DNA from: Treponema sp.
Lineage (GTDB): Bacteria > Spirochaetota > Spirochaetia > Treponematales > Treponemataceae
Assembly: GCA_016288205.1 (NCBI GenBank)
Contig: JAEEYO010000060.1
Coordinates: 1-64,000, forward strand
DNA: 64,000 nt
Reading direction: 5' to 3'
Positions within the stretch are counted from its first letter, which is position 1; each line of letters opens with the position of its first letter. A program made the translations under genes and the position numbers. Below are positions 8,143 to 27,511 of the stretch, piece by piece. The notes beneath the pieces are model-generated. The model was not told the DNA's origin. It made no database searches and worked only from the letters and a program-made list of their open reading frames with translations.

Positions 8143-8153
8143 CTGTCCGTCCC

Positions 8154-9278
8154 CTATTTGTATCTGATTCTCGGATCAACAATGGCAAGCAGTATGTCGC
8201 TTATGACCATACCAATCAGGACGAGAGCCGAAATGAACATCGTGTTTGCAAGCACAAGATTTATGTCCTCCTGCATGACAGCCTCGTACATCAGCCTTCC
8301 AATTCCCGGATATGCGAAGATGATTTCCAGAACCAGGCTTCCGCCGAAAAGTCCCGCAAGCAAATTCGCGCTTCCCGTTATATAAGGATTGAGCGTGTTT
8401 CTGAACGCATGGTTAAAATAAACTCTCTTCTCACTTATCCCCCTCGCACGGAGGGCAAAAATATAGGGCATTCCCATCTGGTCGAGCATGGTCGCTCGGA
8501 TCATCCTCATGGTTCCTCCCACGCCGCCAAGGAAAGACGTGAGCAAGGGAAGAAAAATGTGGTGCGCATAACTGAACGTGAATTTCACCGGAGTCTCGGC
8601 GAATGTAAAATCCGGGTAGGCCGTGACAGGAAAAAGACCCGTGACGGACGCGAAAAGCTGAAGGAGAATCAAAAGCAAAATGCCCGGGAAAGCATGGAAG
8701 AAAAGAGCGAAGAAAGTCGCCGCGGTATCTATCTTGGTTCCCGCCTTGGTCGAAAAAAAGACTCCCAGCGCAAAGGAAAATCCCGTGATGAAAACGAGCG
8801 AGATTAAATTCAGCAGGACCGAATTCCACAATCTGCTCCTGATTAAAAATCCAACCGGCGCGCGTGAGACAAGGCTTGTTCCCAAATCATGATTCACAAA
8901 AACACGCTTGAGCCATTTGAAATACTGCACGTAAAAAGGCTTGTCCAGTCCGAACTCAGCCCTGAGGCTTTCCATCTGCGTCTGCGAAAAAAATTTGTCG
9001 TCCCCGGAGCCGCCCAAAGCACCAGAGGGAGAAGCCCCGTTTTTCGGTGAGTTTCCCTCCACGCTTGACATTAGCTGCTGCGACATCATCTGGTCCACAA
9101 TATCACCCGGAGCAAGTTCCATCAGACCGAACAATGCGAATCCCAGAAAGAAAAGAAGGAAAAGCATGGTCACGACACGTCCGGTAATAAAAGACAGAAG
9201 AGGCGATTTCGCGCGGAACTTTTTCCAGGGCATGGAAACCGTAGCCGCCAGATTCTTAAAAAAATTTCCTGCTTTCAT
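8154..9278 (-). CDS. oppB: Oligopeptide ABC transporter permease OppB
   Basis: 374 residues. This is an inner-membrane permease that pairs with the OppC half of the next gene to form the peptide channel. It has an N-terminal membrane helix (GRVVTMLFLLFFLGFALFG), a periplasmic stretch with a low-complexity Ser/Gly insertion at about 85-105, then the binding-protein-dependent transport domain. The EAA loop is near ARGISEKRVYFNHAFRNTL. It is slightly longer than standard OppB because of the insertion. The start has GGGTGGGA upstream. Gene order is oppA-oppB-oppC/D-oppF. Confidence 0.95.
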   Translation of the reverse strand: MKAGNFFKNLAATVSMPWKKFRAKSPLLSFITGRVVTMLFLLFFLGFALFGLMELAPGDIVDQMMSQQLMSSVEGNSPKNGASPSGALGGSGDDKFFSQTQMESLRAEFGLDKPFYVQYFKWLKRVFVNHDLGTSLVSRAPVGFLIRSRLWNSVLLNLISLVFITGFSFALGVFFSTKAGTKIDTAATFFALFFHAFPGILLLILLQLFASVTGLFPVTAYPDFTFAETPVKFTFSYAHHIFLPLLTSFLGGVGGTMRMIRATMLDQMGMPYIFALRARGISEKRVYFNHAFRNTLNPYITGSANLLAGLFGGSLVLEIIFAYPGIGRLMYEAVMQEDINLVLANTMFISALVLIGMVISDILLAIVDPRIRYK

Positions 9279-9313
9279 TTTATCCCACCCATTTAAAGCA
9301 AATAATTTTTTTT

Positions 9314-11170
9314 CTACATAGATTCCTTAAGGAATACATGCGATGTCTCAGTTCCGTTTCTGTTGTCAAAATAAACGTTGCTCAAATCCCAGCGGTTCCT
9401 GATTGCGAAGAAGCTGCGGCTCCTCATCAGGTAGATTACCGGGCACTCCTCAAGCAGAATCTGCTGGTACTCGTCCCAAATCACCTTGGCCTTGTCATGG
9501 TCAATCGTGTAGCAGCCCTCGTTGTAAAGATAGTCCACACGCGCCTCCCAATCCGTGGCGGGCTTTTCCTGAAGCGGATACCACAAGTGCAGGTTTCCGT
9601 TGCTCGGCCACACGTTGCTTCCCTGGGATGGGAATGAGTTTGTTCCGAGTCCTATGAAAATGCTCTGCCAGTCATAGGTGGAAGAGAGCATCTCAACAAG
9701 CTTTTGGAAATCAATCTGACGGATGTTGATTTTTACTCCGAGCTTCGAGGCCTCGTCCACAATAATCTGCGCGATGTCGTTCAGGACAGTGTTGGACGCA
9801 GCGAACGTAAGGTCGAATTCCAAAAGATTTCCGTTCCAGTCGTAATACATTCCGTCCTTTTTCGTGAACCCGGCCTTTTCGAGCAGCTCCCCGGCGCGCT
9901 TCAAATCATAGCGGTACTGCAAGGTAATCTCGGGATTATAATACGGATTCGTCTCCGGGAAAAAGTCGTACTTAGCCTGAGCAAGTCCCCTGTAAGTCTG
10001 ACTCGCAACCCTGTCGCGGTTAAAGACACAGCTCATGGCCTGACGGAATTCCTTTTTCGTAAACCACTCATAAAACGGCTGGTCCTTGTTCACCGGATTC
10101 TGATTGAAAGACCACATTGAGGCTCCCATCGATCCTTCCGCATTGAAAACAGTGTAGTCATCCTTCTGATTTTCTATCAAATCGCTCACATCCTCCGGGC
10201 GAGGTGAATAGGCTTCGGTCTGTCCCTGCTTGAACAAAAGATAGTCCGTATTCTGGTCGCCGATAATCTGACAGACAAGCTGCTCGTAATATGGAACAGA
10301 AACACCGTTCCCGTCCTTTTCCCAGTAATATGGATTTCTCGTGAAAACAAGACGGCGGGCCGGGATGTACTCCGTTATATAATACTTACCGCACGAGGGA
10401 ATGGTCTTTGGATCCACGTCAATGCTGAAAAGATTTTTCACGGCCTCAGCGCCACCCTTTTCCTTCGCCGGCTTAAAGATGAATGAAGGACAAAGATCCA
10501 TGTTCGTTGCAAGAATCGGGTCCGCGACTATGCGTGGGAAAATAAAATCAAAACGCTTGTCATCAATTTTCACGCAGTCAATGTGCGCCTCATCCCCGTT
10601 TTCCAGAGTGACCCACTGTTGGCCGTATCCGCTTGAGCTGAACTGTGGATCTCCCGCAATCTCGTTGTACCAGAAAACAAAGTCGTCCGAAGTGACGGGG
10701 ATTTTCTCATCCTTTCCGTAATAAGTCCAAAAAGCGTCGTCCCGGATCGTAAAGTGCACGGTCAAGGTATTTTTTTCCTCATCCGTCTCAATCTCGAAGT
10801 TGGCAATCCGTCCCTTCCATTCGCGGGTAGCAGGCTCATAGTCCGAGAGATAGTCCAATGTGTGGCTGATTATTCCAGAGCTCTCACCGTCACGCTCCGC
10901 AATGAGCTGATTGAAAGTCTTCGGGTCGTTGATGATTGTGTCGTTCCATACACCGCCCACTTTTCCGTCAACGAAATCTCCGCCGGTCCATTTTTTTGTC
11001 ACCGTCTTCTGAATCAGGGCCAGATCATCCGAGACATTGTTCTCAATATCGGAAAGCTCCATCTCCTCGGTCTTGGAACATCCGCAAATCATGGAAGTGA
11101 AGACCAATGAAAAACCAAAAAGAGCCGCAAGCGAGCGGGTACCAATCTTATTAAATGAAATCTTACGCAT
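9314..11170 (-). CDS. oppA: Oligopeptide-binding lipoprotein OppA (solute-binding family 5)
   Basis: 618 residues from the ATG at 11170. It captures peptides in the periplasm and hands them to OppB/OppC. The N-terminus is a lipoprotein signal with charged MRK, a hydrophobic core and lipobox ICGC. The body has family 5 landmarks: FEIETDEEKNTLTVHFTIRDDAFWTYY, DDFVFWYNEI and the repeated NPYYWEKDGNG and FRQAMSCVFNRDRVA segments. A longer in-frame start at 11218 would place the promoter inside the gene and spoil the signal peptide, so it is rejected. There is no ribosome binding site; a consensus promoter abuts the ATG, suggesting a leaderless message. Confidence 0.94.
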   Translation of the reverse strand: MRKISFNKIGTRSLAALFGFSLVFTSMICGCSKTEEMELSDIENNVSDDLALIQKTVTKKWTGGDFVDGKVGGVWNDTIINDPKTFNQLIAERDGESSGIISHTLDYLSDYEPATREWKGRIANFEIETDEEKNTLTVHFTIRDDAFWTYYGKDEKIPVTSDDFVFWYNEIAGDPQFSSSGYGQQWVTLENGDEAHIDCVKIDDKRFDFIFPRIVADPILATNMDLCPSFIFKPAKEKGGAEAVKNLFSIDVDPKTIPSCGKYYITEYIPARRLVFTRNPYYWEKDGNGVSVPYYEQLVCQIIGDQNTDYLLFKQGQTEAYSPRPEDVSDLIENQKDDYTVFNAEGSMGASMWSFNQNPVNKDQPFYEWFTKKEFRQAMSCVFNRDRVASQTYRGLAQAKYDFFPETNPYYNPEITLQYRYDLKRAGELLEKAGFTKKDGMYYDWNGNLLEFDLTFAASNTVLNDIAQIIVDEASKLGVKINIRQIDFQKLVEMLSSTYDWQSIFIGLGTNSFPSQGSNVWPSNGNLHLWYPLQEKPATDWEARVDYLYNEGCYTIDHDKAKVIWDEYQQILLEECPVIYLMRSRSFFAIRNRWDLSNVYFDNRNGTETSHVFLKESM

Positions 11171-15397: not shown

Positions 15398-15674
15398 ATC
15401 TCCTCCCAAAAATGGAATACCCAATACCCTCTTTCATTATCGGAATCAGGCTCACCGGTCTTTATAAAAACTTATTTTCCCGCGCGAGTTTGTGGTTTCA
15501 ATCACCATACCCCGCCACACGAATAAGAAAACCACCGTATCTTCCGTGCGAAACAAAAAAAATCAAAAAAATTTAAAAAAATTTGCAAATTTGTTTACCG
15601 TGGTGAAGATTTGCGGCTATTACTATAGTGAGGGAAAAAAATCCCTTAATCCAAATCAAAAAAAGAGGTGAACG

Positions 15675-16775
15675 ATGGAAAAAAGAAAGACATTAAAAAA
15701 AATACTGAGGGAGACAGTGGTTCCGTCACTGCTGCTGATTTTTTCAGTCCTTCTGAGTGTAATCCCGGGAGGATGCCGCACATCCATAGACGGAGTGGAA
15801 TTCCTTTCAGGAGATTTTACCATCCCGCAGGTGGAGGAAGTGCAGGTCGTTGACGCAAGCCATTTGTCGATGCTTCTTTCAAAGGAAGTAAGCGTAAACC
15901 GTGCGTGCGTGAAGACTGAGGAAAACGAGGATGACGGCAGGATTGAGATAGACGTGGAAAGCGCGATCTCCGAGGACGGCCACAGGATTGATTTTAATCT
16001 TGCGGAAAACACAAAGGTCGGCGGGCTCTATGTTCTTGAGGCTGAGCTTGAGGACTCAAGGGGCAACACTCTAACACTCAGCGTGGATTTCAAGGGATTC
16101 AACGACCGGGTGCCTGTCATGGCGTTTTCGGAAATCAGGACGGGAGCTTCGGCTTCAAAGTCCCAGTTTGAGTTCGTGGAATTGTACGTATTAAAGGAAG
16201 GAAATACGTCGGGTCTTTCCATCGTGAGCGCGGCGGACGGACTTGAAAGACGCTATCAGTTTCCTGCCATCGAGGTAAAAAAGGGAGAGCGGATTGTCGT
16301 GCATTACAGAAACTATGACAAGACCTGCGTGGATGAGACCGGGGAAAACCTGCTTGCGGCGAGCGCGGAAGATTGCAGTTCTGCCCGAGACCTTTTCATG
16401 CCACAGAACGAAAAGAGCTGCCTCGGCGACAAGACCGATGTAATCTTCTTGAAAAGCGATGACACAAAAATCATCTACGACGCGTTCGTGTATCTTGAGA
16501 AAGGAAAAAAGACGGCGTTCGATGAAAAGTACACATCTGCTTTGAGCGAGCTTGAGGAAAGCGGAATCTGGACGGACGCAAACGGAAACGCAGTGTGTTC
16601 CGCGGATTCTGCCTTTGACGGAAGCCAGATAAAAAGCGCGGCCCACTCGGTGAACAGAAAGTCGGTGACTTCCCTGCCCTGCGACGGCTCTTTGAAATCT
16701 GACAGAAGCCAGTGGTATGACATCGGGAAAAAGGCATTGCAGACTCCGGGGAAAGCAAATTCCCTGCCGCAGTAG
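15675..16775 (+). CDS. Lipoprotein with an Ig-like/lamin-tail-like layout
   Basis: 366 residues. The signal sequence ends in a relaxed spirochaetal lipobox (IPGGC). The mature part has two regions. About 45-145 looks like a bacterial Ig-like sandwich that ends ADLEDSRGNTLTLSVDFKG-style. About 150-360 opens VMAFSEIRTGASASKSQFEFVELYV and then ERIVVHYRNYD, a pattern seen in lamin-tail domains of Treponema surface proteins. It is probably anchored in a membrane, with a binding or structural role; no enzyme motif is visible. The ribosome binding site AAGAGGTG is clear. It ends 61 bases before the exporter promoter, so it may or may not belong to the secretion locus. Confidence 0.7.
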   Translation: MEKRKTLKKILRETVVPSLLLIFSVLLSVIPGGCRTSIDGVEFLSGDFTIPQVEEVQVVDASHLSMLLSKEVSVNRACVKTEENEDDGRIEIDVESAISEDGHRIDFNLAENTKVGGLYVLEAELEDSRGNTLTLSVDFKGFNDRVPVMAFSEIRTGASASKSQFEFVELYVLKEGNTSGLSIVSAADGLERRYQFPAIEVKKGERIVVHYRNYDKTCVDETGENLLAASAEDCSSARDLFMPQNEKSCLGDKTDVIFLKSDDTKIIYDAFVYLEKGKKTAFDEKYTSALSELEESGIWTDANGNAVCSADSAFDGSQIKSAAHSVNRKSVTSLPCDGSLKSDRSQWYDIGKKALQTPGKANSLPQ

Positions 16776-16835
16776 AGATTTTTGAGGAAATCAATAAAAA
16801 AATCAATCTTTTTTTAAGAATTTGTTTTACTTTTA

Positions 16836-16863
16836 TTGATTTTTTTCATTTTCTTCGTACAAT
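16836..16863 (+). promoter_or_regulatory. Promoter of the type I secretion locus
   Basis: TTGATT (16836-16841), a 16-base T-rich spacer and TACAAT (16858-16863). The predicted start near 16870 leaves a short leader with GAGG before the TTG start at 16893. Because promoter and leader read as hydrophobic codons, the exporter frame could be mis-extended upstream to 16836. Confidence 0.7.
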
Positions 16864-16892
16864 CTAACTTCTATAAAGTTGAGGACTTGAAA

Positions 16893-19055
16893 TTGAGCTA
16901 CAACAAAAAGTTTTGTTTCGTAAAACAATTGGATGAGACTGACTGTGGAGCTGCCTGCATTGCGACGGTATCCAAGTATTACGGAAAATCCCTCTCATTC
17001 GCAAAGATAAGGGAACTTGCGGACACAGATTCCTTGGGCACAAGCGTAAAGGGAATGCAGAAAGCCGCGAAATGTCTGAACATGACATGCAAGGTTCTCA
17101 TATCAAAAGAAAAAACACTTAAGGACGACTATAATTATCCGTTGATATGCCACACCATCATAAACGGACTCAACCATTACGTCGTCGTTCTAAAAACCAA
17201 GCGCGACATGGTTCTTGTGGCAAACCCGGCGGAAAAAATCTCATGGGTAAAGAAGGATCAATTTCTTCAATGGTGGACGGGAGTATTTTTGTCTCTCGCA
17301 CCGACGATAGAATTTGAAAAGAACTCGGAGGACAAATCCTTTCTCGCACGCTTTTTATATCTATTAAAAGGCAGCAGATCCGTGGTCACTCTGGTCATAA
17401 TATCAAGCCTGTTCCTTACCCTGCTCGGGATTTTGGGCGCGTTCTATTTCCGCTTCCTGATTGACGACGTTCTTTATTCGCACATGAAGACTACGCTTGT
17501 AGCCATATCGCTTGGATACCTTGTCGCAATCATCTTTCAAAACATCCTGGGATACTCAAGGAACCATCTGGTCATGTTCCTGGGAAATAAAATAGAAGCG
17601 AAACTTCTCTTGAATTTTTTCCGGCACATAATGAGGCTGCCTCTGGATTATTTTGTGAAAAGAAAGGACGGTGAAATTCTCTCCCGGCTCTCCGACATCA
17701 ACTCAATAAAGAACGCGCTTTCGGCAATGACGGTCGGAGTGATTCTGGACAGCATAATGTTCATCTTCGGCGGCATCGTTCTCTTCGCGTTCAGTCCCAA
17801 GCTGGTTTTTGTCGCGATGATTCCGGTGATTCTTTCAGGGATTACGGTGCTCCTTTCATCATCCACATACAAACGTCTTATTTACAACAGGGCAGCGGTT
17901 GAGGCGGACAAGTACTCACATTTCGTGGAAAGCATAAGCGGCATCTCGACCATAAAGGCGCTCTCCGTGGAAAATGATTCTTATGGGAAAGCCGAGCTTA
18001 AAATCATCGACTCAATCCAAAAAGGTTTTTCACTCAACAACTTCGGGAACGCCATCGCAACGGTGGAATCCTTTCTTTCCCAGATAGGAAATCTGGTTGT
18101 CTATTTCTACGGAAGCATACTCATTATGAGGGGCGACATGTCTTTGGGCGAGCTGATTTCTTTCGTGACTTTACTCGGATTTTTCCTCGGACCGCTGAGC
18201 AGACTAATCACCTTGCAGCCACAGATTCAGGAGCTGTCCGTCGCGGGAAAAAGGCTCGGTGAGATATTTGACTCAAAGGAAGAAAGTGCGGAAAAAGATT
18301 TCTCATTCCATCTGGATAAAAAACATGACTTCAAGAAAATCAGCGTAAAAAACCTTTCGTTTGCATTCGGCTCCAGGGGAAACACCTTGCAGGACATAAA
18401 CCTTGAGATCAATGCGGGTCAGAAAGTCGCGTTCGTGGGAAGCTCGGGATCAGGGAAAACGACATTGATGAAACTGCTTTTGAAATTTTACAGCCCTGAC
18501 AAAGGAAAAATTCTTCTGGATGACAAAAACATCACGGACTACAACACAAGCGATTACAGAAATTATTTCGGTTATGTGCCGCAGGAAACTCTTTTGTTCA
18601 GCGACACCATACAGGGAAACATCGCGCTTGGAAATTACGATGCGTCTCCTGAGGAGATAAAAAAAGCCGCGGAAGATGCGGATGCCTTGGGATTCATCGA
18701 AAGACTGGATGAGGGATTTTCAACAAAGGTCGGGGAAAAAGGAGCCTCGCTTTCCGGAGGTGAGCGGCAGAGACTTTCGCTTGCAAGGGTTTTACTAAGG
18801 AAGCCGAAGATTCTTATTCTTGATGAAGCAACGTCCAGTCTGGACAGTCTCTCAGAAGCTTCAATCATGAACACAATTGACAATCTTCCGGAAGGGACAA
18901 CAACAATCATTGTGGCGCACCGTCTTTCCACAGTAACGAAGTGTGACAAAATCTTCGTGCTCGATGAAGGTAAGCTGGTGGAAGAAGGAACCCATGAAGA
19001 GCTTCTAAATAAGAACGGTTTTTATTCACGGCTGTGGAAGAGCCAGAATAAATAA
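16893..19055 (+). CDS. Peptidase-containing ABC exporter (C39 peptidase, membrane domain, ATPase)
   Basis: 720 residues from a TTG start at 16893, eight bases after GAGG; this gives the family N-terminus just before VKQLDETDCGAAC. Such exporters cut a double-glycine leader off their substrate and pump the mature protein across the inner membrane. Residues 1-125 are the C39 peptidase with Cys18 and His95; the third catalytic position, normally Asp, is Asn111. A six-helix membrane domain spans about 165-440. The ATPase has Walker A GSSGSGKTT, signature SLSGGERQR, Walker B ILILDEATSSLD and H-loop AHRLST. The next gene encodes a protein with a matching leader, and the adaptor and outer-membrane factor lie downstream. 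Confidence 0.94.
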   Translation: MSYNKKFCFVKQLDETDCGAACIATVSKYYGKSLSFAKIRELADTDSLGTSVKGMQKAAKCLNMTCKVLISKEKTLKDDYNYPLICHTIINGLNHYVVVLKTKRDMVLVANPAEKISWVKKDQFLQWWTGVFLSLAPTIEFEKNSEDKSFLARFLYLLKGSRSVVTLVIISSLFLTLLGILGAFYFRFLIDDVLYSHMKTTLVAISLGYLVAIIFQNILGYSRNHLVMFLGNKIEAKLLLNFFRHIMRLPLDYFVKRKDGEILSRLSDINSIKNALSAMTVGVILDSIMFIFGGIVLFAFSPKLVFVAMIPVILSGITVLLSSSTYKRLIYNRAAVEADKYSHFVESISGISTIKALSVENDSYGKAELKIIDSIQKGFSLNNFGNAIATVESFLSQIGNLVVYFYGSILIMRGDMSLGELISFVTLLGFFLGPLSRLITLQPQIQELSVAGKRLGEIFDSKEESAEKDFSFHLDKKHDFKKISVKNLSFAFGSRGNTLQDINLEINAGQKVAFVGSSGSGKTTLMKLLLKFYSPDKGKILLDDKNITDYNTSDYRNYFGYVPQETLLFSDTIQGNIALGNYDASPEEIKKAAEDADALGFIERLDEGFSTKVGEKGASLSGGERQRLSLARVLLRKPKILILDEATSSLDSLSEASIMNTIDNLPEGTTTIIVAHRLSTVTKCDKIFVLDEGKLVEEGTHEELLNKNGFYSRLWKSQNK

Positions 19056-19061
19056 TTGTAT

Positions 19062-19100
19062 ATGACGGGTATCATTCGCTATCCACAACAAAAAAAGAGG
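19062..19100 (+). repeat. Intergenic hairpin element, copy A
   Basis: First of four related elements in the secretion locus. After ATGAC comes stem GGGTA, loop TCATTCGC and stem TATCC (19067-19084), then CACAAC, an A-run and the ribosome binding site of the double-glycine protein. The stem pairs with one G-U. Confidence 0.8.
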
Positions 19101-19106
19101 TGAAAA

Positions 19107-20468
19107 ATGTTTAAGAGATTTAGGAACAACAAGAAGAGTTTTTACAAAGAACTTGTAGTGCCTGAAGGATGCCGTGAGCTGACAGACGAGGAGATGTTCA
19201 GGATCAACGGCGGAAGCACGGAGAAAAAAGACGGATCTCAGGGTTCTCAGGACTCAAAGGGAGAGTCTCAGAGCAGTTCTGTCACGGTACAGAGCGGCAA
19301 CACAATGAGCCAGATTGTGAGCGACTACAACAAGGCTAACGGCACGAATTACACCGTGAACGAAATTGCACAGAAAAATGGAATCTCGAATCCCGATGTC
19401 ATTCATCCGGGGCAGCATATCAATTTTGGAGATTCCTCATCAGGGGCTGGAAATCCGGCAAATTCTCCATCCGCTTCACAAGCAAATGGAAACTACGGCG
19501 CAAACGGTTCGTATGGTTCAAACGGTGTCTACGCATCAAACACGCCAACAAAATCTTCAAGCGAATCGGGAAAGATGACATCCACAGCGTCCTCTACAGG
19601 AACAAGTTACTCTTCCAGAGAGAGTACCCCACTAAGCCAGTTCAGCACAAAAGTTTCGAATACCTTCAAAAGAACTAAAACCCAGCTTGCAGAAAAAGCG
19701 AAAAAAGGAAATGCTGTTAGCGGAGAGGAGAGCATTGGCATTCAAGCAAATGGAAACAGCATTATAGGACAAAATGTTTCAGCCAGTCTAAGAGAGTTAA
19801 AAGAAAAACTGGTTTCAAAAACAAAAAATGAAAAAGCAGCCAATCAGACTCCTAACTCTGCAAATTGGGGCAAGCTTGAAAATCAGGATGCTTTGACAAT
19901 GCGAATGCAGGATTATAGGGACTATAAGGATGTGGCGAATAAAAAAAATCAAGCGAATATAAACGCCAAAGATACACAGATGAATGGGAGCAACTCTTTC
20001 AGTCTGTCAGGATGCAAAATGTGCGGGGCGGCAAAGATTGCAAGCGAGGTCGCTGGACGTAAAATCGAGATGAAAGACGACATCAATGATAAATACGATG
20101 CAAATGCAGATGGCTATATGTCACTTGAAGAAGTCACTTCCGCAATCAATGCAAATGTGCCTGAGGGCAAGACGCTGAAGAGCGATTGGTTTGAGAAAAC
20201 TTTGACCAAAGAAAAACTTGACGAGATAGCCGGCTGGGATGGAACCACATACATTCTAGGAAAAGCTGAGAATGTACATAACGGGGATCCTCACTGGGTC
20301 GTGCTTTCTGGCTATTCCGTAAATAATTTGGGACAGTTGCAATTTGATTACTCACCAACAAGCATAAATGATACAAAAAACAACAGATCATATATTCTTA
20401 GTGATCCCAAGGACGGACAAACAAATACTTACAAGATTGTAAAGATTGAAACATTTAATATTCAATAA
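19107..20468 (+). CDS. Secreted double-glycine-leader protein with LysM, EF-hand and C39-like Cys/His domain
   Basis: 453 residues. Residues 1-36 form a leader ending in Gly35-Gly36, with Leu25 (-12), Met30 (-7) and Ile33 (-4) at consensus positions, so the exporter upstream should cut after Gly36. A Ser/Gln-rich spacer is followed by a LysM-like domain (about 59-110), suggesting peptidoglycan binding. Then comes a Ser/Asn/Gly/Tyr-rich stretch (110-175) and a helical Lys-rich part. The C-terminal domain (about 300-453) has Cys306 in the context CGAA and His396 in DPHWVVLSGY, the arrangement of C39-like papain-fold peptidases. Between them a 12-residue EF-hand loop (331-342) has D, N, D, G and E at the ligand positions. 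This is far larger than a bacteriocin. Peptidase activity, target and cleavage are inferred. Confidence 0.8.
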   Translation: MFKRFRNNKKSFYKELVVPEGCRELTDEEMFRINGGSTEKKDGSQGSQDSKGESQSSSVTVQSGNTMSQIVSDYNKANGTNYTVNEIAQKNGISNPDVIHPGQHINFGDSSSGAGNPANSPSASQANGNYGANGSYGSNGVYASNTPTKSSSESGKMTSTASSTGTSYSSRESTPLSQFSTKVSNTFKRTKTQLAEKAKKGNAVSGEESIGIQANGNSIIGQNVSASLRELKEKLVSKTKNEKAANQTPNSANWGKLENQDALTMRMQDYRDYKDVANKKNQANINAKDTQMNGSNSFSLSGCKMCGAAKIASEVAGRKIEMKDDINDKYDANADGYMSLEEVTSAINANVPEGKTLKSDWFEKTLTKEKLDEIAGWDGTTYILGKAENVHNGDPHWVVLSGYSVNNLGQLQFDYSPTSINDTKNNRSYILSDPKDGQTNTYKIVKIETFNIQ

Positions 20469-20476
20469 TAGGAGAA

Positions 20477-20573
20477 AACAACATGAATAAATTTTTTAAA
20501 GTCTACTCACTTATGATGCTTTTGGCTTTCTTAATTTCCTGTAACAATGTCAAAACAGAGAAAAGCAAAGAGG
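20477..20573 (+). repeat. Direct repeat covering a lipoprotein signal peptide, copy 1
   Basis: 97 bases, identical at 96 positions to 22854-22950; the single difference is G at 20565 versus T at 22942. It spans the bases just before the ATG, the whole signal peptide and the first residues after the lipobox Cys. Downstream of it the two genes are unrelated. Confidence 0.95.
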
Positions 20574-21478
20574 CAAATTCACCAAGTGAAACAGCAACAT
20601 TATCTGTAGAGAGTACAGGTTCCGTGGAAAACAAAGTTCCAAAAGTTTTTGCTTCATATTTTTCACAAATGCTTCCAAATTATGATTTTTTAATAAGAAA
20701 TTCACTTTTTCAAGAATATCTTTATATTGAAAACCTAGACATGGTAAAAGACAAAATAGTCAAGGTGGAGCAAGAACGGTACACTCTCTATAACGGTAAC
20801 AAGTCTTGGGAAGGAGACGGCGATACTCAGGTTAAAATATGGAATTACTATGCGTTTGATTCTGACGGATTTATTACCGACGAATACAGTCTGTTCAGGG
20901 AAACTCCTGAAGATGGATACGTAACCTACTGGTTCCACTCCAAATATCGCTATGACGGAAACAGAATTTATGTGTCTACGAAAGACTATTGTGACAACAG
21001 CTCCTCTGAGTCCTATTACGAATTCACAGAAGACGGAGACAAGCTGATTTTTAAGTCCAAGGCCGCCACATCAGTGACTGAGTACCTTAAGGACAAACAG
21101 ATTTATTACCCTGACTACAGCGACAAATCCAAATTCACTGAGACCATCTTTGTTGGAGACAGACAAATTAACAACGACTGGAGGGATGGAGAAATCGTCT
21201 GGATAACGGAAATGGAACGCGGCGCACAGGTAAAAAGGCAGTTCCCATATCTGAAACGCATTGCAACGGAAACGTATGAGTTTAACGGAGAGGAAGGAGT
21301 AATCAAACTGGACGGAGAAATCACAGGAAAAGTACGGAGAAAAATGCATCCCGCGGGATTTGTGGAAGAGGACGAGAAAGGTCCGGTTGAAGACGGTTCG
21401 AACGGCGTATACGAGATTAAATATACAAAAATCTTGGATGCCCCGGATGAAATATTAAAAAAATACTTTGAGTTTTGA
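20483..21478 (+). CDS. Lipoprotein of the secretion locus (unknown function)
   Basis: 331 residues starting 15 bases after the stop of the double-glycine protein, with AGGAG upstream, so the two are tightly coupled. The signal peptide ends in lipobox LISC. The mature protein begins with a polar linker and continues as a strand-rich domain with many Tyr/Asp/Gly turns (for example YRYDGNRIYVSTKDY and YYEFTEDGDKLIF), a pattern of MORN-like or antiparallel beta-repeat proteins. I do not recognise a family. Its position directly behind a candidate secreted peptidase makes an immunity, inhibitor or surface-docking role worth testing. It lacks the hairpin element found before other genes of the locus. 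Confidence 0.8.
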   Translation: MNKFFKVYSLMMLLAFLISCNNVKTEKSKEANSPSETATLSVESTGSVENKVPKVFASYFSQMLPNYDFLIRNSLFQEYLYIENLDMVKDKIVKVEQERYTLYNGNKSWEGDGDTQVKIWNYYAFDSDGFITDEYSLFRETPEDGYVTYWFHSKYRYDGNRIYVSTKDYCDNSSSESYYEFTEDGDKLIFKSKAATSVTEYLKDKQIYYPDYSDKSKFTETIFVGDRQINNDWRDGEIVWITEMERGAQVKRQFPYLKRIATETYEFNGEEGVIKLDGEITGKVRRKMHPAGFVEEDEKGPVEDGSNGVYEIKYTKILDAPDEILKKYFEF

Positions 21479-21613
21479 ATGCTCATTGATTCGACCAAAA
21501 GGCATCATGTAAAATAAGTTTTACAATGCTTAAAGATTTAGAAGAGGAAACAAGGTGAGCCTTGAAAAAAAGCTTTTAGATGCCAACATTTACAACTATT
21601 TACAGGAGAAATT

Positions 21614-22792
21614 ATGAAAAAAAATATTTTGAAATCTGTTCTTGCCATTTGTACCTTGATTTTTGCCGCATGCACAAACAAGCAGGAGCAGAACACGGAC
21701 TTAACATCTTCATTGGAAAAACAGAACAATGAGACTGTTCAGGAAAAAAACGTCACACCACAGGACGACAGGATTTATATAAAGTTCTTATATGAAAAAA
21801 ACTATGGCTTACTGGACTCAAAATTAAATATCATTGAGAAAAATAATTACAGGGATATATTTCTCATAAATGATAATATCTTTTTCCTTGATGCAAATGA
21901 GGTCAGAATTACTGATTTAGATTTGAAGCCAAAAGCCGAAGTGAAAATGAATGCTGACAACAAGATTATGAATATCTTCTATTTAATTGATGATTTTTAC
22001 TGTCTGAAAATGTTTGATACAAATGATATTGTCTATAACATGAAGAGCGGTGAGAGCGTTTCGTACGGACAGTTGGATTCCAATCATTCAAACAAATCAA
22101 CTTCATTCTTGCAACCTGTTTGGACCAGAGGATATTATGTTTCTCTGCTTGACGGAAAACAGTATTTTAACGACAGGAATTATGAAAAAACATTTCAGTT
22201 CTCAAACGGACTCGCGGCAGTCCTAAAGGAAGATTGGTCAAAGGCTTTAATCAATGAGGACGGAACAATCATTCTTGATGATGTAGTGAATTGCGGAAAA
22301 GCTTTTACTAATGGACTTATGCCCGTCATAACGAAAAAAACTTCCGGCTACATCAACGGAAATGGTGAGTTTGTCTTCAACTGTGATTTGGTAGACGAGG
22401 ACTGGAGAACGAATGTAAGTGGACGCCCAACGCTACGCGGAAGTTTCACAGAGGATTATGCTTATGTTCACACGAAAGATAATTGCTGGACGATTATGGC
22501 AATGGACGGAACAATAATAAAAGACAATATCCCGTATGAAACACGGAGCGACGGTTTCTCATGTGGCCTGATTAATGTATACAGCAATGGAAAATCTGGA
22601 TATGCCAACAGAAGCGGGGAACTTGCAATTCCAATGGTCTTTGATTCCTCAGAAGATTTCTCAAATGGATACGCGATGGTAATCTATCAGGGAGAAAATG
22701 GAATCCTCGATACAAATGGAAATGTCTATCTATGCAAGGACTTATTTAACGGCAACAAAAAACCTTTTGTAAATGTGACAGACATTCAATAG
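21614..22792 (+). CDS. WG-repeat lipoprotein
   Basis: 392 residues. Lipobox FAAC, then a polar linker. The mature part contains degenerate WG-type beta repeats of about 35-40 residues: FSNGLAAVLKEDWSKALINE, FTNGLMPVITKKTSGYING, FSCGLINVYSNGKSGYANRSG and FSNGYAMVIYQGENGILD. WG repeats form extended beta folds and usually mediate binding rather than catalysis. The ribosome binding site is ACAGGAG. The 135 bases before it hold no convincing gene, only a possible 20-codon GTG frame that would end over the start codon. The coding sequence is clearly A+T-rich compared with the TolC gene of the same locus. Confidence 0.82.
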   Translation: MKKNILKSVLAICTLIFAACTNKQEQNTDLTSSLEKQNNETVQEKNVTPQDDRIYIKFLYEKNYGLLDSKLNIIEKNNYRDIFLINDNIFFLDANEVRITDLDLKPKAEVKMNADNKIMNIFYLIDDFYCLKMFDTNDIVYNMKSGESVSYGQLDSNHSNKSTSFLQPVWTRGYYVSLLDGKQYFNDRNYEKTFQFSNGLAAVLKEDWSKALINEDGTIILDDVVNCGKAFTNGLMPVITKKTSGYINGNGEFVFNCDLVDEDWRTNVSGRPTLRGSFTEDYAYVHTKDNCWTIMAMDGTIIKDNIPYETRSDGFSCGLINVYSNGKSGYANRSGELAIPMVFDSSEDFSNGYAMVIYQGENGILDTNGNVYLCKDLFNGNKKPFVNVTDIQ

Positions 22793-22802
22793 TTAAATAT
22801 TT

Positions 22803-22853
22803 TTGACGACACATGACGGATACCATTCACTATCCACAACAAAAAAAAGAGAG
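22803..22853 (+). repeat. Intergenic hairpin element, copy B
   Basis: TTGACGACACATGAC, then stem GGATA, loop CCATTCAC and stem TATCC (22818-22835), then CACAAC, an A-run and AGAGAG. The stem is perfectly paired; relative to copy A and C a G-U pair has become A-U. Confidence 0.85.
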
Positions 22854-22950
22854 AACAACATGAATAAATTTTTTAAAGTCTACTCACTTATGATGCTTTT
22901 GGCTTTCTTAATTTCCTGTAACAATGTCAAAACAGAGAAAATCAAAGAGG
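22854..22950 (+). repeat. Direct repeat covering a lipoprotein signal peptide, copy 2
   Basis: Second copy of the 97-base segment at 20477-20573 with one mismatch. It supplies the start codon context and signal peptide of the lipoprotein at 22860. Confidence 0.95.
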
Positions 22951-23882
22951 ATGAAGTTGCTGTCAATATTGATCAGTCTGCATCCCCTGTAAAATCCGCC
23001 AGTGCCAAAGAAACGGAAACGAAAGAACCGATGCCGGTTGTGGACATGGGGTTTTCATTTGAAAAATATTACATCACAAGTTTATCCTGCACATTTGGTG
23101 GAATGGATATCAAAGATGGAAAAATTGCCTATACAGCCGGCACAACAACTGCCCCTGATTCTGATTCCGAAAAAATGCCAACGGAAGTCACCTATGAGTT
23201 CACGCATATAGACGGGATGCCGTTTATTAAAATGGAAAAGCCTTTTCCAAAGGAGTTTCTTTCTGATTATGTTAATTATGGCACGGACGCAAAGCCTGAT
23301 AACAAAATGCTTTTCCTTGTATGTAAAACAAAAGAGTTGGGAATTCAGGCACTTGGCATTACCCGCGCGAATGATTCAGATTTTATGATTATAGAACCTC
23401 GTTGGATGGAGATGTCATCAAGAATTTACAAAGACGAGACATCGCACTTTATTGAAAAAAACGGAGTGGAATATCCGGTAAAAAACCTTTGCAAAATGGA
23501 CTCCGAAACTCCTTGGGCAGAAGGAGCTACCGGACATGGAATCGGAGAATCCTTTGTTCTGGAAAACACCTGGGGAACAGTGTACAAAACCCTACTTATA
23601 ATGAACGGTTATATTTCTTATGAAAGGCCGTATCTTTACAAGGAGAACGGACGCATAAAGAAAATAAAAGTAGCCGGCGTAAAAAGCGGTAAAGAAAAAA
23701 TACTTGATGTCCTTGACACGCCACACCCCCAGAGCGTGGACATAGGTTTCATCACAGAGCCGGAAGATTTGAGGATAACAATAGAAGATGTTTATCCTGG
23801 AACAAAATATGAGGACACATGCATTCATTTTATGATTACATCTATGGATGAAGTTGTCCCATACGAGCTTTCGATTAAGTAA
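22860..23882 (+). CDS. Lipoprotein of the secretion locus sharing a signal peptide with the 20483 gene
   Basis: 340 residues from the ATG at 22860. An earlier in-frame start at 22803 would run through hairpin copy B and hide the signal peptide, so it is rejected. The signal peptide and first mature residues are identical to those of the lipoprotein at 20483 except one Ser/Ile difference, while the rest is unrelated. The mature domain has about 300 residues with a Cys/Gly-rich stretch (TSLSCTFGGMDIKDGKIAYT) and mixed strands; no family is recognised. Exchange of mature domains behind a constant signal sequence is typical of rapidly diversifying surface or immunity genes. Confidence 0.8.
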   Translation: MNKFFKVYSLMMLLAFLISCNNVKTEKIKEDEVAVNIDQSASPVKSASAKETETKEPMPVVDMGFSFEKYYITSLSCTFGGMDIKDGKIAYTAGTTTAPDSDSEKMPTEVTYEFTHIDGMPFIKMEKPFPKEFLSDYVNYGTDAKPDNKMLFLVCKTKELGIQALGITRANDSDFMIIEPRWMEMSSRIYKDETSHFIEKNGVEYPVKNLCKMDSETPWAEGATGHGIGESFVLENTWGTVYKTLLIMNGYISYERPYLYKENGRIKKIKVAGVKSGKEKILDVLDTPHPQSVDIGFITEPEDLRITIEDVYPGTKYEDTCIHFMITSMDEVVPYELSIK

Positions 23883-23900
23883 ACAAGAATTAAGAAATTT

Positions 23901-23952
23901 TTGACGACACATGACGGGTATCATTCACTATCCACAACAAAAAAAAGAGAGA
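23901..23952 (+). repeat. Intergenic hairpin element, copy C
   Basis: Nearly identical to copy B over about 50 bases. TTGACGACACATGAC precedes stem GGGTA, loop TCATTCAC and stem TATCC, followed by CACAAC, an A-run and AGAGAG before the HlyD-family start. Confidence 0.85.
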
Positions 23953-23959
23953 TAAAAAA

Positions 23960-25102
23960 ATGTTAGTTTATTCAGATCAAAATCTTACAAGGACACAGGA
24001 ATTTTTCTTCAAGCAAAAACCCACGATGCAGCGGAATCTGATAATTGCAATCATTGTCTCCATCGTCGTGACACTTGCCTGGTTTGTATTCGCGCCGTTT
24101 GAGGAAGTAATCAGATGCTCAGGATACATAAGGCCACGAAGCAATATATCCACATTGTCAAATGCCGTAACCGGAAGAATAATAAAAGTGGATTACAATC
24201 CCGGAAAAGCGGTAAAGAAAGGGGACCTGCTTTTAAGCATAGATCCAACGCAGATATTAAAAGAAAAGGAATCCGTTGCCACCGAGCTGAGCGAGCAAGA
24301 GAAAAGATTGCAGGGATTGAAATATATCAATGAAAGCATAGCTCAAGGAAGGAATCTTATTCCAACTGAGTATAAAGAGGCTGATTTAAGATTCAAAAAA
24401 TGGCAGGAAGATATCAGGCAGCTGGAGAAGACAAAAAACTACAATCTCCAGATTTTGAATGAAGAAAAGAACCTGCCGGTGAACATGACCACGGAAGCAC
24501 GTCTGAGGGATTATTCGTACAGATACAATTCTGCCCTGAACGAGTACACCGCCCTTAACACATCATTCAGGCACGACGTAACTCAGGAAATAGAGGTCTT
24601 GGAAAAAAACATAAAGCTCAACAAAACAAAGCTGGAGCAGATTGAGGACTCGCTGAAATACACGAACGTCATCGCACCCATTGACGGAATCATTCAGGAG
24701 ATATCGGCACTCAATCCCGGTGACTGGATTCAGAGCGGACAGAAATTGTTCAATATAGTGCCATGCGGAAACAAGGATTGCATTGTGGAGCTGTCTGTCC
24801 CCGCAACCCAGGCAGGAAGACTTACGGAAGAGTCGGAAGTAAAACTTCGTTTTCCCAGTCTGCCATACTATGAATATGGAGGAGCAAAAGGAAAGATATT
24901 GACAATCGACCCTGATATTTCTGCGACAAGCAATGGAACGGCAGTTTTTGTGGTTCGCACGGACATGGATAAAAACACCTTGAATGGAAAATCAGGAAAA
25001 AACTTTCCATTGAGGATCGGATTGCAGACTGACGCAAGAATAATAGTGAGCAAAAGAACCTTATTGGGATATGTTTTGGAGAAATTGAACCTATGGTATT
25101 GA
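23960..25102 (+). CDS. HlyD-type periplasmic adaptor of the type I secretion system
   Basis: 380 residues. It has a short cytoplasmic N-terminus, one membrane helix (about 26-46, LIIAIIVSIVVTLAWFVFAP), then a biotinyl-lipoyl half (VTGRIIKVDYNPGKAVKKGDLLLSID), a long alpha-hairpin (about 95-235) and the second lipoyl half (VIAPIDGIIQEISALNPGDWI). The C-terminal beta domain ends RIIVSKRTLLGYVLEKLNLWY as in HlyD/LcnD adaptors. It bridges the inner-membrane exporter and the TolC-type channel encoded next. Its last ten bases overlap the next gene. Confidence 0.93.
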   Translation: MLVYSDQNLTRTQEFFFKQKPTMQRNLIIAIIVSIVVTLAWFVFAPFEEVIRCSGYIRPRSNISTLSNAVTGRIIKVDYNPGKAVKKGDLLLSIDPTQILKEKESVATELSEQEKRLQGLKYINESIAQGRNLIPTEYKEADLRFKKWQEDIRQLEKTKNYNLQILNEEKNLPVNMTTEARLRDYSYRYNSALNEYTALNTSFRHDVTQEIEVLEKNIKLNKTKLEQIEDSLKYTNVIAPIDGIIQEISALNPGDWIQSGQKLFNIVPCGNKDCIVELSVPATQAGRLTEESEVKLRFPSLPYYEYGGAKGKILTIDPDISATSNGTAVFVVRTDMDKNTLNGKSGKNFPLRIGLQTDARIIVSKRTLLGYVLEKLNLWY

Positions 25103-26574
25103 GAACAAAAGTCATCGCAATTCTGTTTCTCCTCTTTTCAACAGGACACATGTTTTCCCAGGAAACAAGAGGCGGTAACTACGCGGTCTCCGTGATCGGC
25201 ACTGTCCTGAGGGAGTCTCCGGAGGGGATAATCATCCGGAACAATGTTGACGCAAGCGGAACGGCAATCTCCCAGCAGGAGAAGTCATGGCTGCCGTCCG
25301 TCCAGTTGGATTTCTCCGCGGACTCAAGGCTCGTGCAGGGAGAATACCGGTACATCAAAAACGGAGGAGTCATCACGGCACCCCAGATCATCACCTCCCC
25401 CTCCGCAGGAATCGCACTGTCACAGAGGCTGCCCGGAAACGGAAGCCTGTCACTCGGCGCGGGCTACTCGGTCTCATGCCTTACAGGACGAGACGCATAC
25501 ATCCAGCAGCCCTACATTCAGGTCAGTCTCTCGCAGAGCATTGCCCCGGGAGCGTTCTTTCTCACGAAGGATCCGTCCTTAGAGATGATCAAGAACCAGA
25601 GGGATCTCCTGATCATGGAAAGCGACGGCGCGATGTTCGAGCTCGCTGTCAGCTTCATCACGGCGGTGCAGGACTACGACCTCGCATTGCAGGAGAAGGA
25701 ATATTACGGCGCGATGCTGAGGAAGTCGGACGCTGAGTACGAGGAGCAGAGCCACAGGCACAGGAGCGGACAGAGGAACAACATCGAGCTCTTCAACTCG
25801 CACATGAGCCATACTCAGGCGGCGCAGGGATACCAGGAGGCAGGGCGGAAACTCAGCGAGGCGGAGGCAGTCCTTGGACGCTACAAAATATGCGGCATAG
25901 AAAATCAATGCGGACAGTTCAGGGACGGAGTCAGAATCCTGCTGGATATACCTTACGAGGGCAGGGATAGCCAGACCATGCAGGAATATGAGATTCTGAG
26001 CGAGATAACGAGCGAGGAGCTTTCCCTGAGGATTGACAGGTCAAAACTCGCGCCACAGATCTACATGCAGGCATCCGTCTCGCCGGACCAGAACAAGAAC
26101 GGTGAGTACAGGGACATGAGCCGTTCTCTGAGGGATCTCGCGGACACGCCATACGCATGGACAATGGACGCGACGGTCGGGGTCAGCATCGCACTGGACC
26201 TTGCCTCGCAGGGAAAGGCATTGCGTGAGGTGTCGGACAAAAAAATCAGGAGCCTGAGCCTGCAGCTGGACGTACTCCGTGACGAGCAGGAGAAAATGAG
26301 GGGCCTGTACCGTGAGTGGTGCGTGTCATTCTCCGCATATTGCGCTCAGATGGAGCGTGCTCTGGGCGAGGAGGAGGAATTCAGGAGGGACATGAAAACC
26401 CTGCTTGAGAGGAACGAGATAACCGAGGCGCAGTACTGGGCGACCGAGACAAGCTACTACGAGACGCGGCTGAGCTATTACCGAAGCGTCTGGGGCATGA
26501 TCCAGGGGAAGCTCGGCATACTGAGGCTCTCGTCCGGATGGATGGATTTTATCAGACAATTTATGGAGGCATGA
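25093..26574 (+). CDS. TolC-type outer-membrane efflux protein
   Basis: 493 residues, overlapping the adaptor gene by ten bases. It has a Sec signal peptide (VIAILFLLFSTGHMFSQ). The mature protein shows the two-fold alpha-hairpin and beta-strand plan of the family: long helices around 170-260 and 385-470, each beside short amphipathic strands. It should form the outer-membrane exit duct for the double-glycine substrate. The codon choice is different from the preceding genes, with abundant AGG and CTG and a visibly higher G+C, while translational overlap shows that it now functions in the same operon. The domain identification rests on overall pattern rather than a sharp motif. Confidence 0.85.
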   Translation: MVLRTKVIAILFLLFSTGHMFSQETRGGNYAVSVIGTVLRESPEGIIIRNNVDASGTAISQQEKSWLPSVQLDFSADSRLVQGEYRYIKNGGVITAPQIITSPSAGIALSQRLPGNGSLSLGAGYSVSCLTGRDAYIQQPYIQVSLSQSIAPGAFFLTKDPSLEMIKNQRDLLIMESDGAMFELAVSFITAVQDYDLALQEKEYYGAMLRKSDAEYEEQSHRHRSGQRNNIELFNSHMSHTQAAQGYQEAGRKLSEAEAVLGRYKICGIENQCGQFRDGVRILLDIPYEGRDSQTMQEYEILSEITSEELSLRIDRSKLAPQIYMQASVSPDQNKNGEYRDMSRSLRDLADTPYAWTMDATVGVSIALDLASQGKALREVSDKKIRSLSLQLDVLRDEQEKMRGLYREWCVSFSAYCAQMERALGEEEEFRRDMKTLLERNEITEAQYWATETSYYETRLSYYRSVWGMIQGKLGILRLSSGWMDFIRQFMEA

Positions 26575-26575
26575 T

Positions 26576-27091
26576 ATGAAAAAGTTTTTTGGGGCATGTT
26601 TATTGCTTTTATTCTCACTCGCAGGATGCACAATGCTCAATGCACCAGAGGGAACTGCGGAGATTTCGGAGCCGACTGTCCGCACAAGGATTGAACGCCC
26701 TACAGCAAGCGAGGAGGTCGTGTATTGCAGCGCGGACGTGAAGATCTCCAACACGAGCGACAAGACCATATACGGCTGCACCGTCACGGCTGTGGCGACA
26801 TCCGACACGGGCATAGAGCATTATGTGACGCTGAGCTATGACGTGAACATACCGCCGTCGCAGAGCATATATGTCACAATTGAGTGGAGCCTTGTAAGGC
26901 AGATAGATACCAAGACCAAAGTGGTATCAGAAACCAGCTCGCATATACCGGGCTCAAGTGTAACAAGCTCAACATCAAGTTCATCAAGCTCAACTTCTAC
27001 CACAAGCACGACAGCGAGTGTCACGGATTCAAACGAGGAGAAGGACTGGAACAAGAGCTCCGTAAGGATAGTGGATTATTTTTTCAATTAA
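26576..27091 (+). CDS. Small lipoprotein with Ser/Thr-rich tail, last gene of the secretion operon
   Basis: 171 residues starting one base after the TolC stop. Lipobox LAGC. Residues 40-115 look like a small FxLYD/DUF-type beta sandwich (VYCSADVKISNTSDKTIYGC then IPPSQSIYVTIEW), a layout common in lipoproteins that decorate outer-membrane complexes. Residues 120-150 are almost entirely Ser/Thr. It shares the higher-G+C codon style of the TolC gene and probably arrived with it. It could assist assembly or anchoring of the channel; this is inference. Its stop is followed by hairpin copy D and the operon terminator. Confidence 0.75.
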   Translation: MKKFFGACLLLLFSLAGCTMLNAPEGTAEISEPTVRTRIERPTASEEVVYCSADVKISNTSDKTIYGCTVTAVATSDTGIEHYVTLSYDVNIPPSQSIYVTIEWSLVRQIDTKTKVVSETSSHIPGSSVTSSTSSSSSSTSTTSTTASVTDSNEEKDWNKSSVRIVDYFFN

Positions 27092-27106
27092 ATATTTTAC
27101 GTCCGG

Positions 27107-27140
27107 ACATGACGGGTATCATTCAATGCCCACAAAAAAA
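27107..27140 (+). repeat. Intergenic hairpin element, copy D
   Basis: Degenerate fourth copy after the last gene. ACATGAC, stem GGGTA, loop TCATTCAA, stem TGCCC, then CACA and an A-run. The right arm differs from the other copies (TGCCC instead of TATCC), yet still pairs fully with GGGTA allowing one U-G. Confidence 0.75.
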
Positions 27141-27143
27141 TGG

Positions 27144-27203
27144 AACTTCCGCAAGCTCAGGAACACAATCGGTTTACGTGAACCAAGCAAGCGGAAGTTT
27201 TAA
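27144..27203 (+). terminator. Rho-independent terminator of the secretion operon
   Basis: AACTTCCGC (27144-27152) pairs perfectly with GCGGAAGTT (27191-27199) and a T-run follows. An inner hairpin GGTT...AACC sits in the loop. On the other strand it could also help to end the convergent membrane-protein genes at 27227. Confidence 0.8.
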
Positions 27204-27226
27204 TCAAAAAAAGCTGTCGGGTCAGT

Positions 27227-27511
27227 TTATGCCCTGGCTTTCTTCATCTTATTGGCAACGAGCATCAGGGCAAATATTGCAAGACCGGAACCAAGGATTA
27301 TGAATCCAAGGATTGTGTCCTCCATGCTGATGTCGAAGAAAGACTCCCCCTCAGCGACACACGCGATTCCGTCAACCGCCCACATCAGGGCAGCTCCCCA
27401 GAACATGAGCATGGTTGCAAAAATCGGCTTGGAAAATTTACCATTGCTCTTTTGAGCGATGAAAATAATGGAAAAAATAACGGCGGCACAAATAGTCATA
27501 ATCTCACACAT
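27227..27511 (-). CDS. Small integral membrane protein
   Basis: 94 residues with about three hydrophobic helices (TICAAVIFSIIFIA, PIFATMLMFWGAALMWAVDG and TILGFIILGSGLAIFALMLVA) and a basic C-terminus (NKMKKARA). No family recognised. Its ATG shares a base with the stop of the preceding gene (TGATG), so the two are translated together and their products probably interact in the inner membrane. The orientation opposes the secretion operon. Confidence 0.75.
   Translation of the reverse strand: MCEIMTICAAVIFSIIFIAQKSNGKFSKPIFATMLMFWGAALMWAVDGIACVAEGESFFDISMEDTILGFIILGSGLAIFALMLVANKMKKARA

What the first reader, a model, noticed from the sequence alone, without database searches (positions are those of the whole stretch)
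19062..27140. A hairpin element repeated four times in the secretion locus, with compensatory stem changes
Seen: ATGAC, a 5-bp stem, an 8-base loop (T/C)CATTC(A/G)(C/A) and CACA plus an A-run at 19062, 22803, 23901 and 27107. Stem pairs are GGGTA/TATCC (A and C), GGATA/TATCC (B) and GGGTA/TGCCC (D). Each combination pairs, so arms have changed together while the loop stayed constant. Three copies lie directly upstream of a ribosome binding site. Inference: a conserved RNA element for processing, stability, translation control or protein binding that coordinates the genes of one secretion operon. It may alternatively be a DNA inverted-repeat operator.
Basis: seen in the sequence. Interest (0 to 1): 0.78.

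Follow-up and report, generated by a model that had tools for sequence, protein, structure and literature searches.

The report
Conserved leader of secreted-protein gene cassettes
A 26-base sequence repeated between the genes of a Treponema protein-secretion locus is real and conserved in two relatives, where it sits mostly in front of the genes for the secreted proteins, but the claim that its hairpin is proven by paired mutations does not hold.

Summary
The repeat is real. Four copies of ATGACGGRTAYCATTCRMTRYCCACA lie in the locus, none elsewhere in the genome within 3 mismatches. A profile search adds a fifth, degraded copy before a broken double-glycine (GG) precursor ORF on another contig. 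Only two other genomes have credible copies: G080 (Treponema sp. UBA3649; four, one degenerate) and G146 (one). Of the 10 copies, 7 precede a GG precursor gene (one broken).

Where fourfold-degenerate sites are near saturation (identity 0.23-0.45), the element stays 17-23 of 24 identical, so it is probably constrained.

The covariation claim fails: one of five pairs changed on both sides, and 213 of 500 or 254 of 500 shuffles do as well. One copy has no stem, and several stems are weak in context. It is not a conserved small ORF, a terminator, a consistent sigma-70 promoter or an Rfam family.

Best reading: a short mRNA leader/intercistronic element that travels at the front of cargo cassettes. 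The window's copies A to C mark a cargo block lying between exporter genes that abut in relatives. How it acts is inferred.

The parts
19062..19087 (+). Element copy A, between the C39-peptidase ABC exporter gene and the double-glycine (GG) precursor gene
   Evidence: 63.1 bits
22813..22838 (+). Element copy B, upstream of the NADase_transloc-domain lipoprotein gene; the unit shared with C is 22799-22854
   Evidence: 67.3 bits
23911..23936 (+). Element copy C, upstream of the HlyD-family gene; the unit shared with B is 23897-23952
   Evidence: 69.4 bits
27109..27134 (+). Element copy D, 17 nt after the stop of the last exporter-side lipoprotein gene, with no gene directly after it
   Evidence: 50.3 bits
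27142..27200 (+). Strong inverted repeat followed by T's, terminator-like, directly after copy D
   Evidence: 121-nt stretch 27090-27210: -31.4 kcal/mol, z -3.7, 0 of 200 shuffles
16836..19055 (+). Peptidase C39-containing ABC exporter
   Evidence: Peptidase_C39 1.2e-32; TIGR01193 above cut-off; of 78 matches in the own genome it is the only one that reaches into the peptidase part
19107..20468 (+). GG-leader secreted precursor with LysM domain (cargo)
20483..21478 (+). Lipoprotein-like gene (cargo block)
   Evidence: no family; signal-peptide-like start seen
21614..22792 (+). Lipoprotein-like gene with WG repeat (cargo block)
22860..23882 (+). Lipoprotein-like gene with NADase_transloc / NADase-type glycan-binding domain (cargo block)
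23960..25102 (+). HlyD-family adaptor
   Evidence: HlyD_3 2.5e-20
25093..26574 (+). Outer membrane efflux (OEP/TolC-like) protein
   Evidence: 1.7e-5
26576..27091 (+). Lipoprotein-like gene ending the exporter block; in relatives the element and a GG precursor follow its homologue
   Evidence: (no family)

Best explanation
The element is a short conserved leader or intercistronic sequence of the mRNA, about 26 nt plus an A-rich linker and ribosome-binding site, that sits at the front of cargo cassettes (GG-leader secreted proteins and their lipoprotein partners) of a peptidase-ABC secretion locus in a few Treponema species. Shown: its place, orientation, spread, and conservation beyond near-neutral sites. 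Shown by comparison: the exporter genes ABC and HlyD abut in relatives, and here a cargo block lies between them with element copies at both ends and one inside. Inferred: the copies arose by duplication and rearrangement of cassettes together with their front. Inferred, and least certain: the element acts in the RNA, as a small hairpin or single-stranded target just upstream of the ribosome-binding site, so that cargo is translated or its mRNA processed separately from the exporter genes.
For: Orientation: all 10 copies read in the direction of their genes. Position: 8 of 10 are followed by an A-rich stretch and a ribosome-binding-like site; D has no gene and G146 has a longer, less A-rich linker. 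Cargo link: 6 of the 13 GG-leader matches at E <= 1e-4 in the three genomes carry it, plus a broken GG-like ORF in the own genome. Junctions, my count: 6 of 6 boundaries between exporter genes and cargo or locus end have a copy, 0 of 10 boundaries within the exporter block (ABC to lipoprotein) do. Constraint: D, G080a, G080c and G146, all just after homologues of the same lipoprotein gene, are 17-23 of 24 identical in 6 of 6 pairs, while fourfold sites of the locus genes are 0.23-0.45 identical in 18 gene-pair comparisons and the intergenic flanks are not recognisably alike by eye. Not coding: as an ORF the variable columns in 8 intact copies fall 0, 6 and 3 (of 8 each) on codon positions 1, 2 and 3, and no variable codon is synonymous-only.
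Against: No covariation beyond shuffles. Copy G080d has no stem. The stem's mean pairing probability in context is 0.00-0.66 for A and 0.00-0.09 for G146, and shifts with flank length for C, G080a, G080b and the fifth copy. 7 of 13 GG-leader matches have no element, so it is not required for such genes. Copy D has no downstream gene. B and C stand before non-precursor genes. Similarity between copies could also be kept by recombination or transfer rather than by selection at each site. No RNA data were available.
Confidence: 0.45

Rival explanations
1. Recombination seam: the element has no regulatory job of note; it is the shared short homology through which cargo cassettes were duplicated, inserted and lost, and its spread records those events.
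For: The four copies sit in four unrelated gene contexts. ABC and HlyD (or its remnant) are 0-3 nt apart in both G080 loci and in G146 but are split here by a block with copies at its ends. B and C share a 56-nt unit. The lipoprotein starts at 20463-20573 and 22840-22950 are 95% alike over 111 nt. G080d is a copy whose left half is the end of the gene before it. T. denticola has three duplicated lipoprotein/GG-protein gene sets with high DNA identity (PMC11879956, Discussion read).
Against: 17-23 of 24 identity between copies after the same lipoprotein homologue, with near-saturated neutral sites, calls for constraint or repeated transfer. No recombinase among 20 locus and neighbouring proteins scanned against Pfam. 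A 26-nt homology is short for ordinary recombination (general knowledge).
Confidence: 0.25
2. DNA operator or internal promoter: a regulator binds the imperfect inverted repeat GGATA-N8-TATCC and controls transcription of each cassette.
For: Inverted arms (wobble allowed) in 9 of 10 copies. G146 has a good -10/-35 pair just upstream (10 of 12 matches, 13 of 300 shuffles as good).
Against: The conserved part is asymmetric: letters of ATGAC on one side and of CATTCA in the middle are about as conserved as the arms. The other 9 of 10 copies have no sigma-70 match better than shuffles (64 to 300 of 300 shuffles as good), nor at a common place. No regulator gene was recognised among the 20 proteins scanned. 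Other sigma factors were not tested.
Confidence: 0.2
3. Small upstream ORF (MT-x-x-I-x-Y-P...) ending near the start of the next gene, coupling translation.
For: Open in 8 intact copies over 8 codons and, read by eye, to near the next start in most.
Against: Changes concentrate on second codon positions and none is synonymous-only. The fifth copy has a one-base deletion that shifts the frame, and G080d has lost the ATG. No ribosome-binding site is evident before the ATG in most copies (by eye).
Confidence: 0.04

Closest known systems
Duplicated lipoprotein/GG-signal protein gene clusters with bacteriocin-type ABC exporters in Treponema denticola (TDE_0416, TDE_0422, TDE_0424; tepA1-B1)
   Same: Treponema, bacteriocin-type ABC exporter, GG-leader secreted proteins with lipoprotein partners, duplicated gene sets (PMC11879956: passages, Discussion)
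   Different: That paper's main text has no hit for 'intergenic', 'promoter' or 'hairpin'.
Intercistronic RNA elements that give genes of one operon different output (REP elements, processing sites; recalled, general knowledge)
   Same: Short sequence at gene boundaries on the coding strand
   Different: Known examples rest on stable stems or mapped cuts; here the stem is weak and there are no RNA data.

Membership tests
Structured RNA family with covariation | Compensatory changes beyond chance | tested here: not met
   1 of 5 pairs with a both-sided change; 213/500 (9 copies) and 254/500 (10 copies) shuffles as good
Structured RNA family with covariation | Match to a described Rfam family | tested here: not met
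   whole window, 0 matches at gathering score; 15400-27400, E up to 5: 3 matches far below gathering scores, none at a copy
REP-like dispersed palindromic element | Many copies across the genome | tested here: not met
   4 copies within 3 mismatches, 5 credible with the profile (9 matches at E <= 10, 4 of them E above 2)
Intrinsic terminator | G+C-rich stem followed by a T run on the same strand | tested here: not met
   Copies are followed by A runs; one search lists none at a copy
Sigma-70 promoter | -35/-10 boxes at a common place in the copies | tested here: not met
   Only G146 beats shuffles (13/300); the other 9 do not
Tyrosine recombinase core site (inverted arms around a constant 6-8 bp centre; recalled) | Inverted arms and a constant centre | tested here: inconclusive
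   Arms GGATA/TATCC and centre CATTC mostly kept, but G080d lacks the left arm
Tyrosine recombinase core site (inverted arms around a constant 6-8 bp centre; recalled) | Recombinase gene linked to the sites | tested here: not met
   None among 20 proteins of the locus and its neighbours; the rest of the genome was not searched for one
Conserved small ORF | Synonymous changes favoured, frame kept | tested here: not met
   frame shift in the fifth copy
Bacteriocin-type (TIGR01193) secretion locus | C39-ABC exporter with GG-leader substrate and accessory proteins | tested here: met

The most novel reading that the evidence does not exclude
A dedicated boundary element of a modular secretion locus: a short RNA sequence that marks every junction between exporter and cargo genes, lets cargo cassettes be exchanged, and sets cargo expression apart from the exporter.
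Probability: 0.15. Interest if true: 0.55.

Novelty: new member of a known kind. Interest (0 to 1): 0.32.

Why it matters
If the element does set cargo apart from exporter genes, it offers a sequence tag for finding secreted proteins of some Treponema species and a simple target for testing how they are controlled. If it is only a seam, it still shows how cargo cassettes have moved within such loci.

Tried and rejected
Covariation as proof of the hairpin: rejected. Small ORF: rejected. Sigma-70 promoter and terminator: no consistent match. Rfam: none. Presence in viral contigs: 0 exact matches.

Wider spread and rows dropped. Family pattern search (274 genomes, up to 3 mismatches): 6 genomes with a match, the own genome included, 11 places. 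I kept 7 (4 own, 3 in G080) and set aside 4 (G100, G129, G132, G136) as chance because, read by eye, they lie in what looks like unrelated coding sequence. Order pattern search (291 genomes, up to 2 mismatches): two further single matches (G355, G235), set aside because open reading frames run through them. Profile search in 196 genus genomes: 17 places at E <= 0.1, of which 10 kept (5 own, 4 G080, 1 G146) and 7 set aside (G059, G060, G202, G141, G233, G229, G074; E 2.8e-4 to 0.057) because the printed sequence (plus strand of each locus, read by eye) shows no GG-type or secretion context; their reading frames were not worked out. The kept fifth own copy has an E-value (3.9e-4) no better than the best of those dropped; it is kept for its context before a GG-like ORF beside two GG precursor genes.

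An idea that the block entered by microhomology with the start of HlyD in G080 rested on letters I had inferred from the protein; one search showed other letters and I dropped it. Literature: four searches showed nothing on such an element in their listings; one paper was opened (PMC11879956: passages, Discussion). That the element is not described rests on these searches alone.

Full report
WHAT IS THERE. The window is part of contig C72 of a 3.5-Mb genome (99.3% complete); its near relative G080 is Treponema sp. UBA3649 by matching contig lengths and copies. Four copies of ATGACGGRTAYCATTCRMTRYCCACA lie at 19062, 22813, 23911 and 27109 on the + strand; none more within 3 mismatches in the whole genome. 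The genes are a C39-peptidase ABC exporter, a GG-leader LysM protein, three lipoprotein-like genes, HlyD, an outer membrane efflux protein and a small lipoprotein-like gene. Copies lie between ABC and the GG gene (A), before the NADase_transloc-domain gene (B), before HlyD (C) and after the last gene (D). B and C are recent duplicates (96% over 56 nt).

WIDER SPREAD. The family pattern search (274 genomes) gave further credible copies only in G080, three of them. A profile built from 9 copies (model R1) was searched in 196 genus genomes. I keep 10 of its 17 places: 5 in the own genome, 4 in G080 and 1 in G146; the 7 set aside are named in Tried and rejected. Nine of the 10 built the model, so only the fifth own-genome copy (C53:43622, 35.8 bits, E 3.9e-4) is an independent find, and its score alone does not separate it from the best of those set aside; its context does. 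It precedes a short broken GG-like ORF next to two GG precursor genes that lack the element. An exact search of named genomes found only Treponema sp. UBA3649 (3 stretches). Viral contigs: 0. I fetched 40 regions around HlyD relatives; 3 of these 40 (two of G080, one of G146) hold a copy.

GENE ORDER. In G080 C59, G080 C169 and G146 the ABC gene is followed directly by HlyD (or its remnant), and the element lies after the small lipoprotein gene and before a GG precursor. In the window, cargo genes stand between ABC and HlyD with copies at both ends, and copy D remains at the place where relatives have the element, with no precursor after it. By my count, 6 of 6 boundaries between exporter block and cargo (or end) carry a copy, 0 of 10 boundaries inside the exporter block do, and among cargo genes some do and some do not. 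In the three genomes 6 of 13 GG-leader matches at E <= 1e-4 have the element.

CONSERVATION. The four copies after homologues of the same lipoprotein gene (D, G080a, G080c, G146) share 17 to 23 of 24 letters in the six pairs. Fourfold-degenerate sites of ABC, HlyD, OEP and the lipoprotein gene share 0.23 to 0.45 in 18 comparisons. Such sites are close to saturation, so the element is constrained, or has been re-supplied by recombination or transfer. I cannot fully separate these.

THE HAIRPIN. Alone, the 29-nt copies fold at -3.0 to -7.5 kcal/mol, except G080d, which does not fold (9 copies). In context the stem is likely in B, D and G080c, variable in A, C, G080a, G080b and the fifth copy, nearly absent in G146 and absent in G080d (10 copies). 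One of five pairs shows a both-sided change; two pairs never vary. Shuffles match the observed pairing in 213 of 500 and 254 of 500 cases. The slid controls pair far less (20-47%), but that is expected when the structure was read from the same sequences. So the hairpin is possible, not shown.

OTHER READINGS TESTED. As an ORF, variable columns fall on codon positions 1, 2, 3 as 0, 6, 3 of 8, with no synonymous-only codon, and the fifth copy shifts frame. Sigma-70 matches beat shuffles only in G146. Rfam has nothing. No recombinase or regulator was recognised in 20 proteins scanned.

VERDICT. A real, narrowly spread, probably constrained element, most often the leader of GG-protein cassettes, copied with them. 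Its action in RNA is an inference (0.45). Recombination seam (0.25) and DNA operator or promoter (0.2) remain open. T. denticola has similar duplicated lipoprotein/GG-protein sets (PMC11879956), so the duplication itself is not surprising.

Noticed in passing
window 20463-20573 and 22840-22950: The starts of two lipoprotein genes are 95% identical over 111 nt while the rest of the genes differ, a sign of recent exchange or duplication.
   Followed up: partly
window about 15630-15648: A GGGA-A-run-TCCC inverted repeat at the presumed start of the operon, with a similar one at the same place in G080 (L042).
   Followed up: no
L114 (G000:C53:33000-52900), about 6062-10800: A second array of GG-leader precursor genes in the same genome, with no exporter gene recognised beside it; one search found only one ABC match that reaches into the peptidase part, so that exporter may serve both.
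   Followed up: partly
L043 9544-10503 (-): In G080 C169 the HlyD and efflux-protein genes are reduced to one fused reading frame (HlyD residues 1-113, then the end of the efflux protein).
   Followed up: no
window 22860-23882: Lipoprotein-like protein with an NADase_transloc / NADase-type glycan-binding domain in a GG-secretion locus.
   Followed up: no
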